From Occallatibacter sp. (GTDB lineage Bacteria; Acidobacteriota; Terriglobia; Terriglobales; Acidobacteriaceae): a DNA stretch of 33,410 nucleotides. The stretch lies in NCBI GenBank assembly GCA_017883405.1, contig JADGNO010000300.1:1-33410 (forward strand). Direction: 5' to 3'. Positions 1-1,818 of the stretch are shown here, one piece after another (positions within the stretch are counted from its first letter, which is position 1; every line of letters begins with the position of its first letter). The translations under genes were made by a program, and so were the position numbers. The notes beneath the pieces were generated by a model, which did no database searches, was not told the DNA's origin, and saw only the letters and a program-made list of their open reading frames with translations.

Positions 1-611
1 AATCGCTTCACCCGTGCGCTCATGTGCTCGACTTCGTTCATGCAATCCAGTCGCGTCACTTCCTGCGCAGGCTGCGTGTATCGGACCTGAGCCAGCCACC
101 TCATGTAGCGCTCTGTCCACGCCTTCAGTCCCAGCGGTGGACGCTGACCTGTACGAAGAAGCAACTTGGTCAGCCGATGCCGTGCGCGCAGCTGATCCTG
201 CTTGGCTGCCTCTCGTTGCCGGACAAGATCGCGCAATGCCTCGGAGTCTTCATCGGGAACCCACACCGCGGTCAGATCTCCGGAACGGTGACTGCGTGCC
301 AGCTTCAACGCGTCCCGCCGATCGGTCTTCACACGGTCTCCTGGCTTCTTCGGAACCAGGCTCGGTGCCACCACCGCGCACTCAACACCCAACTGCGTCA
401 GCTGCCAGTACAGGACGAAGCCTGTCGGTCCGGCTTCATAACAAGCGCGCAGATGCTCCGGCGAACCAAGCTTGCGAATCAACTTCCTGACCGAATCTTC
501 CCGGTTGGCAATCGTTCCCAGGCTGCGAACCTCGCCATCCGGTTCAGCTACTGCTACGGCTATCGTTTCGGCATGGACATCCATGCCCAAAAATCGTAAC
601 TTCTCTCTCAT
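1..611 (-). CDS. IS110-family transposase, N-terminal part (truncated by window edge)
   Basis: This is the N-terminal 203 residues of an IS110 transposase, open to the edge of the window. It starts at an ATG whose Shine-Dalgarno GGAGGG lies at 620-625. The RuvC-like DEDD catalytic set is visible: D11 in GMDVHAE, E59 in YEAGPTGF, and D97 and D100 in KTDRRDALKLA. After these comes the arginine-rich helical region that joins the RuvC-like domain to the C-terminal Tnp domain with its catalytic serine, which is not in view. In this family the transposase, guided by an RNA from the element's own non-coding end, recombines element and target. Long plus-strand frames across the same bases are shadows. 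The family call is firm; whether the element is intact is unknown. Confidence 0.93.
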   Translation of the reverse strand, partial: MREKLRFLGMDVHAETIAVAVAEPDGEVRSLGTIANREDSVRKLIRKLGSPEHLRACYEAGPTGFVLYWQLTQLGVECAVVAPSLVPKKPGDRVKTDRRDALKLARSHRSGDLTAVWVPDEDSEALRDLVRQREAAKQDQLRARHRLTKLLLRTGQRPPLGLKAWTERYMRWLAQVRYTQPAQEVTRLDCMNEVEHMSARVKR

Positions 612-774
612 GACCGGTTCCCTCCGCTTGTGGCTCTGGACTGGCGTTCTTAACAAACTCAGCCTAACCCACGACTAGCGCATCGAGCCGGTCACACCAT
701 AATGACTATCTTGCGGTAAACCTTCAATGCACCTGACCCACTTACCAGGTCCGCCTGCTTTTGCAAGTTGGCAG
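612..774 (-). ncRNA. Candidate bridge-RNA locus in IS110 leader
   Basis: This is the non-coding stretch between the transposase start and the neighbouring gene. In IS110-group elements such as IS621 this end encodes the bridge RNA that pairs with donor and target DNA. Two complementary 7-base arms are visible, TGACCGG at 611-617 and CCGGTCA at 688-694. They could close a structured RNA of about 84 nt that contains the ribosome-binding site at 620-625 and takes in the first base of the start codon. Inside it, GGCTCTGGAC at 632-641 is complementary in part to CGAGCC at 684-689. The RNA call rests on family knowledge plus this pairing; its boundaries and guide loops cannot be set from one copy. 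Confidence 0.4.
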
Positions 775-1806
775 CTATTTGCTTTCTTTAACGACTGCGT
801 ATTCCTCCAGCAGGACCGCGACCAACACCGCTGTAGGGATGGCAACCGTGGCGCCGAGAATGCCGGCCATTGCGGAGCCGATCAATAACGAGACGAGCAC
901 CGCCAGGCCGGGGAGATTGAGGCGGTTCTGCATGATGCGCGGAATCAGGAAAGAATTCTCAATCCACAGATAGATGGCGTAAAACACCGCAACGCCAATC
1001 ACGCTTCCCCACGAGTCGATTGATGCTGAAAGCAGCGCCAACGAGATTCCAATTGCTCCGCCCAGAACCGGAATCAGGTTCAGTGCGCCCATTAGGACTC
1101 CGAGCGCGTAGGCATAACGAACCTTCAGAATCACGAAGGTGAGGGTGCTGCAAATCCCTAGTATGAGCATCAGGCTGCCCTGGCCTACGAGCCACTTATC
1201 CATGCGGAGGCGCGCGCGCTGCAGCGTCATGTCGAGACGGTCGCGGCTGGCAAGTGGAATGAATGTCAGAAACCAGTCGTAAGCGTGCCTGCCCTCAAGG
1301 ATGAAATAGACGGTCAGGATGACGCCCATTGCGATGCTGAAGAGCGCGCTCGCCCAATTCTTGATAGAAAGCAAAAGACCGGTCGCAGAATTGCTGATGA
1401 CGCTCTGCACCTCCGCGCCGATGTTCCCGCCGAGAAAGCCCTGAAGAATCGGAATTCGGCGCAGGCGATCGATAAGCGCAGGAAGACGCGTAGGCATTTC
1501 GCGTCCGAATTCCTGAAGATCTCCGATGACTGGTGGCAGCGCAAGATAGCCGAAGCCCACAATCGCACCTGCCACAAGTAGCAGGAGGAACAGAATCGCC
1601 GATCCCTTGAAAGGGCGATAACGACCGACCCTGATACCGCTCGTCGCTGACACGAGCGGCGAAAGCACTACAGCAAAGAGAGCGCTGACGTAGAGGAGCA
1701 CCAGCTCGTTGCGCAACACCCAGGCCAGGTAACACGCCAGGGCAAGCGCGAATGCAAAGACGATCCCCTTGCGAACACTTATCTCGGTTCTTTGCAGATC
1801 TGTCAT
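775..1806 (-). CDS. AI-2E family transporter (UPF0118 permease)
   Basis: A polytopic inner-membrane protein of the AI-2E/PerM family (PF01594), 343 residues from the ATG at 1806. An in-frame TTG two codons upstream is possible. The family layout is present: paired hydrophobic helices at about 15-60, a long helix near 70-95, an amphipathic soluble segment at about 95-150, then a cluster of C-terminal helices with the conserved stretch around NLIPVLGG and the late helix ending in AIPTAVLVAVLLEEY. Members have been linked to autoinducer-2 export or Na+/H+ exchange, but the substrate cannot be read from sequence. The start lies 12 bases after the stop of the AIM24-family gene, so the two are probably co-transcribed. 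The IS110 element begins right behind its stop codon. Confidence 0.88.
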   Translation of the reverse strand: MTDLQRTEISVRKGIVFAFALALACYLAWVLRNELVLLYVSALFAVVLSPLVSATSGIRVGRYRPFKGSAILFLLLLVAGAIVGFGYLALPPVIGDLQEFGREMPTRLPALIDRLRRIPILQGFLGGNIGAEVQSVISNSATGLLLSIKNWASALFSIAMGVILTVYFILEGRHAYDWFLTFIPLASRDRLDMTLQRARLRMDKWLVGQGSLMLILGICSTLTFVILKVRYAYALGVLMGALNLIPVLGGAIGISLALLSASIDSWGSVIGVAVFYAIYLWIENSFLIPRIMQNRLNLPGLAVLVSLLIGSAMAGILGATVAIPTAVLVAVLLEEYAVVKESK

Positions 1807-1818
1807 TTGCAATTTTGG

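What the first reader, a model, noticed from the sequence alone, without database searches (positions are those of the whole stretch)
609..774. IS110 leader with a closing stem that includes the ribosome-binding site: candidate bridge RNA
The transposase is preceded by about 160 non-coding bases. TGACCGG at 611-617 and CCGGTCA at 688-694 can pair and would close an RNA domain that contains the GGAGGG ribosome-binding site and takes in the first base of the start codon. IS110-group elements are known to encode a guide RNA at this end. If the same RNA segment both guides recombination and gates transposase translation, folding would couple the two. The pairing is seen; the guide role follows from the family; the coupling is inference.
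Basis: partly seen in the sequence, partly recalled or inferred. Interest (0 to 1): 0.55.

Follow-up and report, generated by a model that had tools for sequence, protein, structure and literature searches.

The report
RNA lid on a transposase start

Summary
The pairing is real. TGACCGG/CCGGTCA closes a conserved four-helix RNA inside a 96-nt left end (window 612-707); 708-774 is host flank. On 69 related leaders, 14 of 24 pairs keep pairing through changes on both sides (126 cells; shuffled mean 35.9). It is probably not the bridge RNA: relatives have a short left end, an 11-bp sub-terminal repeat and, downstream of the transposase, a two-loop RNA whose guides match each copy's own flanks (93/145 and 65/105; permuted means 44.2 and 35.1; 0/5000). 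That is the IS1111 layout. The contig ends inside the transposase, so its own right end is unseen. The leader most likely gates translation: predicted cost of opening the ribosome site is 13.2 kcal/mol, 7.1 with shuffled leaders; ISPpu9 is a published precedent. Boldest reading: the arm that shuts the site lies in the terminal repeat, so in transcripts crossing the excised circle's junction the two repeats pair and open it (11.4 to 6.6 kcal/mol, lower in 25 of 27). The gate would keep inserted copies silent under read-through and let circles express. Predicted, not shown.

The parts
1..611 (-). IS110-family (DEDD) transposase, first 203 residues, cut by the contig end; start codon 611-609
   Evidence: PF01548 E 1e-20; NF033542 126.6 bits, below its cut-off of 140 because truncated, full-length relative 244.2
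612..707 (-). Left end of the element = transposase leader RNA (P1-P4)
   Evidence: Homology boundary at 707/708; covariance model R1, 100.4 bits, E 3.2e-22 (the window is a training member)
690..700 (-). Left sub-terminal inverted repeat ATGGTGTGACC, preceded by 7 bases (701-707); its inner part is the P1 5' arm
   Evidence: the right-end partner is seen in relatives only (L050 GGTCACACCAT, 11 of 11)
699..704 (-). CATTAT, candidate -10 of the promoter that forms when the ends are joined; the -35 would lie in the unseen right end
   Evidence: CAnnAT in 58 of 69 left ends; TTGACA in 27 of 33 right ends, spacing 17-18 in 28 of 33
688..694 (-).
611..617 (-).
   Evidence: the pair with the start codon's column can form in 49 of 69
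677..682 (-). P2 5' strand (partner 623-628; one G-G mismatch, 681/624, in this copy)
623..628 (-). P2 3' strand
669..672 (-). P3 5' strand (partner 630-633)
630..633 (-). P3 3' strand
665..668 (-). Nearly invariant internal-loop strand GUUA, opposite 634-638 (CAGAG)
   Evidence: conserved columns; 667-635 and 666-636 may pair
660..664 (-). P4 5' strand (partner 639-643), apical loop variable
639..643 (-). P4 3' strand
620..625 (-). Ribosome-binding site GGAGGG, enclosed between P2 and P1
   Evidence: accessibility predicted
708..774 (.). Host flank between element and transporter gene
   Evidence: not shared with other copies
775..1812 (-). AI-2E family transporter gene, same strand, upstream of the element: possible source of read-through
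   Evidence: PF01594 1.7e-40; no promoter-like site found in 600-1900 and no terminator-like site between this gene and the leader

Best explanation
The leader is a conserved cis-acting 5' RNA of an IS110-family element with the IS1111 layout. In the transposase transcript it folds into a long hairpin (P1-P4) whose base clamps the start codon and encloses the ribosome site, so that transcripts reading in from a neighbouring gene make little transposase. The bridge RNA of this element type is a separate RNA in the right end, outside this window. Shown: the fold (covariation), its place on the start codon, and a separate guide-matched RNA in relatives. Predicted: low accessibility of the start site. 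Inferred: low translation, and whatever opens it.
For: Covariation on a sequence-only alignment with repeated Watson-Crick changes on the transposase tree, at least 12 in P1, 7 in P2, 6 in P3, 17 in P4. Model R1 finds the leader in sequences not used to build it. Opening the -15 to +3 site costs 13.2 kcal/mol on average in 65 of 69 leaders (4 without a start codon found), 7.1 with the upstream leader shuffled, 6.0 with 8 nt of the P1 5' arm removed; 60 of 65 above their shuffle mean, 45 at z > 2; window 13.4, 7.8 and 4.3. Precedent: in ISPpu9 the 5'-UTR fold includes the ribosome site and mutations weakening it gave 26 times the reporter activity (PMC8450116). Guides sit in the right-end RNA.
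Against: No expression data. The fold of the single sequence is not unusually stable. In 5 of 65 leaders the native cost is not above the shuffle mean, e.g. L028. Part of the 5' arm is also fixed by the DNA repeat. The leader is not universal: IS4321 and five of nine other loci show no match. The window's right end is unseen.
Confidence: 0.68

Rival explanations
1. Circle-sensing gate (a sharper form of the best explanation): the hairpin is closed in read-through transcripts of an inserted copy and opens in transcripts that cross the joined ends of the excised circle, because the right-end repeat pairs with the left-end repeat and takes the P1 5' arm. Transcripts from the junction promoter start on the arm and are partly open.
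For: 27 elements: opening cost 11.4 kcal/mol behind the own left flank, 6.6 behind the own right end, 11.7 behind a shuffled right end; lower than inserted in 25, lower than shuffled in 27. By 5' end of the transcript the mean cost is about 14.8 for starts 2-12 nt before P1, 10.7 at the predicted start, 8.1 two nt later, 6.6 four nt later.
Against: L034 and L066 go the other way and L067 and L069 change by about 1 kcal/mol or less. The 27 are related. The overlap of repeat and stem makes the competition nearly automatic, so selection for it is not shown. Whether transcripts cross the junction is unknown.
Confidence: 0.33
2. The leader is itself a bridge RNA or a second guide RNA.
For: The leader is a conserved structured RNA at an IS110-family end with an internal loop; in the IS110 group the bridge RNA is in the left end (PMC11208160 passages).
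Against: Layout of relatives and guides at the other end. Leader against own flanks: longest-match score 197, permuted 200.1, 238/300 as high; but this test is weak, since the right-end RNA itself gives only 217 against 211.0, 35/300. Position scan: best of 332 leader windows z 3.7, right-end RNA z 4.9 at its left guide.
Confidence: 0.06
3. The inverted arms and inner helices are a DNA feature (transposase binding or cruciform), and the overlap with the start site is incidental.
For: The P1 5' arm overlaps the terminal repeat.
Against: P1 pairs outside the repeat, and P2-P4, covary. G-U cells, wobbles of the sense strand, number 88 against 62 A-C cells, which would be wobbles of the other strand (a modest excess). 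The distance to the start codon is kept.
Confidence: 0.06
4. The leader fold is a binding site for the recombinase or a host factor, through the nearly invariant GUUA/CAGAG loop, and autoregulates or stabilises the mRNA; sequestering the start site is secondary.
For: Loop conservation across 69 leaders that pairing alone does not explain.
Against: No binding data; not tested here.
Confidence: 0.2

Closest known systems
ISPpu9 transposase 5'-UTR, Pseudomonas putida KT2440 (PMC8450116; abstract and parts 3 and 4 of the text read)
   Same: IS110-family element; transposase mRNA 5'-UTR folds over the ribosome site and holds translation down
   Different: There the 5'-UTR is 244 nt and two sRNAs (Asr9 antisense, Ssr9) tune it, shown by experiment; here the element's leader is 96 nt, conserved by covariation across many elements, overlaps the terminal repeat, and no antisense RNA was looked for specifically
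IS1111-group bridge RNA / seekRNA in the right end (PMC11208160 passages; PMC11187229 passages and one section)
   Same: Relatives have the short left end, long right end, sub-terminal repeats and a guide-bearing two-loop RNA downstream of the transposase
   Different: That RNA is another molecule; a conserved left-end leader was not mentioned in the passages read
Protection of IS10 and IS50 transposase from read-through transcription (recalled; from no call)
   Same: A transcript from outside folds over the start signal; a transcript from the element's own promoter lacks part of the stem
   Different: Those are DDE elements with their own promoter; here the promoter would exist only when the ends are joined, and the predicted start falls on the first bases of the arm, so the effect is graded

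Membership tests
IS110 family (DEDD transposase) | DEDD_Tnp_IS110 domain | tested here: met
   PF01548 74.6 bits, cut-off 29; full-length relative NF033542 244.2 bits, cut-off 140
IS1111 group | Sub-terminal inverted repeats of 7-17 bp | tested here: met
   In relatives: 10 or 11 of 11 in 28 of 36, changing together at both ends; the other 8 include right ends cut short or not found. Own right end not in the window
IS1111 group | Right end longer than left end, with the bridge RNA in it | tested here: met
   In relatives; not testable on the window's own copy
IS1111 group | Transposase groups with named IS1111 members | tested here: inconclusive
   IS4321 and ISEc21 gave no tblastn match to the 203-residue fragment at E 0.01, so neither could be placed on the tree
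Bridge RNA in the left end (IS110 group) | Left end longer than right end | tested here: not met
   About 100 nt against 350 nt in the three G561 copies; same order in relatives
Bridge RNA in the left end (IS110 group) | Loops complementary to target and donor | tested here: not met
   No excess over permuted flanks, in a test of low power; guides are in the right-end RNA
ISPpu9-type gated leader | 5'-UTR fold that hides the ribosome site | tested here: met
   By prediction and covariation only
ISPpu9-type gated leader | Mutations weakening the fold raise translation | not testable with these tools
   needs reporter fusions
ISPpu9-type gated leader | Antisense RNA from the leader that opens the fold | not tested
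   No dedicated search; the general promoter scan of 600-1900, both strands, found none

The most novel reading that the evidence does not exclude
A transposon senses its own excision by RNA folding: the terminal repeat that marks its DNA end also supplies the arm that shuts transposase translation, and joining the ends in the circle lets the two repeats pair in the transcript and free the start site. Inserted copies stay silent under read-through; circles express.
Probability: 0.33. Interest if true: 0.78.

Novelty: new variant of a known kind. Interest (0 to 1): 0.6.

Why it matters
How RNA-guided IS110-family elements keep their recombinase off between jumps is little known (my judgement). 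A conserved, covarying leader, found here in elements from contigs assigned to six phyla, would give a shared answer separate from the bridge RNA, and a simple reporter assay could decide whether it also senses the excised circle. It also matters to anyone who expresses these recombinases from their native context.

Tried and rejected
Leader as bridge RNA: rejected on layout and on guide matching at the other end; the direct test of leader against own flanks showed nothing but has low power. Known RNA family: no Rfam match over the whole window at gathering scores, and in window 1-1200 at E up to 10 only two chance-level plus-strand matches inside the transposase (E 4.3 and 6.6). Single-sequence stability as evidence: rejected (z -0.87). 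Pairing of the leader's GGGUUA with the right-end RNA's ACCCGCG: considered by eye, no co-variation seen, not tested formally. Strict IS10-type exclusion of the arm by the junction start: not supported as such, since the predicted start is on the arm's first bases; kept as a graded effect. IS4321 as a named carrier: no match. Placing the transposase among named references: failed.

Rows dropped: 19 of 88 leaders left out of A1 as not alignable by eye; of these, R1 later matched L035, L075, L085, L027, L081 below 1e-3, L074 and L072 at 0.011-0.019, L076, L078, L090, L080, L086, L089 at 0.07-0.69, and did not match L052, L073, L077, L083, L091, L092. 4 of 69 without a start codon found. 48 of 69 leaders had no usable right end or flank, or repeated another, before the guide test of 21. 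17 of 53 right ends gave no full right-end RNA stretch, and 6 of the 36 that did were left out of A3. 20 of 53 right ends without a recognised end or -35.

Full report
What is in the window. The minus strand of window 1-611 encodes the first 203 residues of an IS110-family transposase (PF01548 1e-20), cut by the contig's end: the window is contig G000:C167 from its first base, in a 340-contig assembly (78% complete) in which no other copy was found. The leader's features are at the stated coordinates. Upstream on the same strand lies an AI-2E transporter gene ending at 775, with no promoter-like site found in 600-1900 and no terminator-like site between that gene and the leader, so read-through into the transposase is plausible (inference).

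Where the element ends. A search with window 560-860 in 200 genomes of the family found matches in 29; 30 of the 44 places other than the window's begin at query base 153 or 154, that is window 708 or 707. In the genus search (59 genomes) 23 of 24 leader-type places begin there, and 7 of 8 loci taken from it align from 707 or 708, the eighth from 703. Three copies in one genome (G561) share about 1,580 bp: about 100 nt of left end, a 375-residue transposase, 350 nt of right end. By the convention in Siddiquee 2024 (7 bases outside the repeat at the left end; section 7 read) the first element base is window 707.

The leader RNA. Sixty-nine unique leaders (of 88 found; 19 not alignable by eye were left out) were aligned by sequence alone. 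A structure of four helices (P1 closing, P2, P3, P4) was named and counted: 89.9% of cells pair, 14 of 24 pairs have changes on both sides, 126 cells do; shuffles give 83.3%, 9.4 and 35.9, none of 500 reaching the observed; slid partners give at most 17 cells. One measure, further pair types, is not exceptional (70/500). On the transposase tree the Watson-Crick type changes at least 12 times in P1, 7 in P2, 6 in P3, 17 in P4 (quick tree of a partial protein, 32 of 80 inner branches weakly supported). A covariance model built from A1 (R1) finds the leader in sequences not used to build it: L060 3e-19, L035 7e-15, L075 2e-8, and L084, L085, L027, L081 below 1e-3 (78 sources), and in plasmid elements of Azospirillum (4e-6) and Bradyrhizobium (6e-6), more weakly in Sulfitobacter (0.0025) and Paracoccus (0.024), with none in ISEc21, Sphingopyxis, Sinorhizobium, Rhodococcus or Phaeobacter (9 sources). 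In 396 genomes of the phylum, the window's included, 31 have a match. Of the 20 loci returned, which include training members and the window, 14 have a transposase match beside it, 3 more are cut by a contig end after a visible transposase start, and 3 (L167, L168, L172) have none. On 41 diverse matches fitted to the model 17 of 24 pairs have changes on both sides (such an alignment leans to the model). Carriers come from contigs titled as Acidobacteriota, Pseudomonadota, Gemmatimonadota, Spirochaetota, Myxococcota and Bacillota, mostly metagenome bins, which can be misassigned, and lie on both sides of the midpoint root.

Where the bridge RNA is. The right ends of relatives hold a very conserved RNA: 30 aligned copies (of 36 extracted) give 40 consensus pairs in an outer stem and two domains, 14 pairs with a double change. 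In 21 elements with both flanks, the right-hand guide of its first loop matches the element's own right flank at 93 of 145 positions (permuted 44.2 +/- 5.8) and the left-hand guide the own left flank at 65 of 105 (35.1 +/- 5.9); 0 of 5000 permutations reach either. A blind longest-match test is weak: right-end RNA 217 against 211.0 (35/300), leader 197 against 200.1 (238/300). A position scan gives z 4.9 at the left guide, and z 3.7 as the best of 332 leader windows. Together with the 11-bp sub-terminal repeat (10 or 11 of 11 in 28 of 36, changing together at both ends) this is the IS1111 layout: Durrant 2024 places predicted bridge RNAs in the right end for IS1111 and the left end for IS110 (passages); Siddiquee 2024 finds the non-coding region mostly downstream in IS1111, with exceptions (passages). 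Two members of the window's own four-row clade, L003 and L050, carry the right-end RNA. The window's own right end is unseen.

What the leader does. With ViennaRNA, freeing the ribosome site and AUG (-15 to +3) costs 13.2 kcal/mol on average in 65 of 69 leaders, 7.1 when the leader upstream of the site is shuffled, 6.0 when 8 nt of the P1 5' arm are removed; 60 of 65 lie above their shuffle mean, 45 at z > 2; the window gives 13.4, 7.8 and 4.3. This agrees with ISPpu9, where a 5'-UTR fold likely hides the ribosome site and a construct with the fold weakened had 26 times the reporter activity (abstract and text parts). Mechanism proposed: the hairpin clamps the start codon and keeps the transposase low, above all in transcripts reading in from outside. 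Fold and position are shown; the effect is predicted.

A switch built into the ends. The P1 5' arm is the inner part of the left terminal repeat. In the circle, the right end brings its own copy, inverted, directly upstream. In 27 elements with both ends, the opening cost falls from 11.4 (own left flank) to 6.6 (own right end joined), against 11.7 with the right end shuffled; it is lower than inserted in 25 and lower than shuffled in 27. Exceptions: L034 and L066 rise, L067 and L069 change by about 1 kcal/mol or less. In L012 the competing hairpin has about 15 pairs. Right ends also carry TTGACA (27 of the 33, of 53, in which a -35-like hexamer was recognised), at 17-18 bp (28 of 33) from a position that reads CAnnAT in 58 of 69 left ends. 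This predicts a start on the first bases of P1; the distance is fixed in 68 of 69. Mean opening cost by 5' end falls from about 14.8 (starts 2-12 nt before P1) through 10.7 (+1) and 8.1 (+3) to 6.6 (+5). So both kinds of circle transcript are predicted to be more open than read-through of an inserted copy. This is the most novel reading; selection for it is not shown, since the overlap of repeat and stem makes the competition nearly automatic.

Known or new. No Rfam family matches at gathering scores. Six paper searches were answered; their listings and the passages read showed the ISPpu9 precedent but no conserved leader of this kind in IS1111-layout elements. That library lacks most subscription papers and preprints, and supplements and figures were not seen, so absence from print is not claimed. 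Verdict: the pairing is real and conserved, the bridge-RNA label is probably misplaced, and the gate idea is likely and now has a concrete, testable form.

Noticed in passing
L172 (G223:C318:2538-2658); L167; L168: Leader RNAs with no transposase match beside them; in L172 the leader is closed by an inverted copy of its own end (CTAGACATCATGGATTGACC and the reverse complement, nearly perfect), like a small foldback or miniature element.
   Followed up: partly
window 665-668 and 634-638 (minus strand): Nearly invariant GUUA/CAGAG internal loop of the leader with no assigned role; a possible protein or ligand site.
   Followed up: no
L050, L033, L079, L044, L030 element ends: Left and right sub-terminal repeats change together between elements (for example GTGTG with CACAC), so the repeat is maintained as a pair.
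   Followed up: partly
window 1; L192, L197, L199 and other loci cut inside the element: Several assembly contigs end inside copies of this element, as expected of a multi-copy repeat; the window's first base is such a break.
   Followed up: no
L025 (contig titled Rhodanobacteraceae): Its element nests among Acidobacteriaceae copies on the transposase tree: horizontal transfer or a misbinned contig.
   Followed up: no
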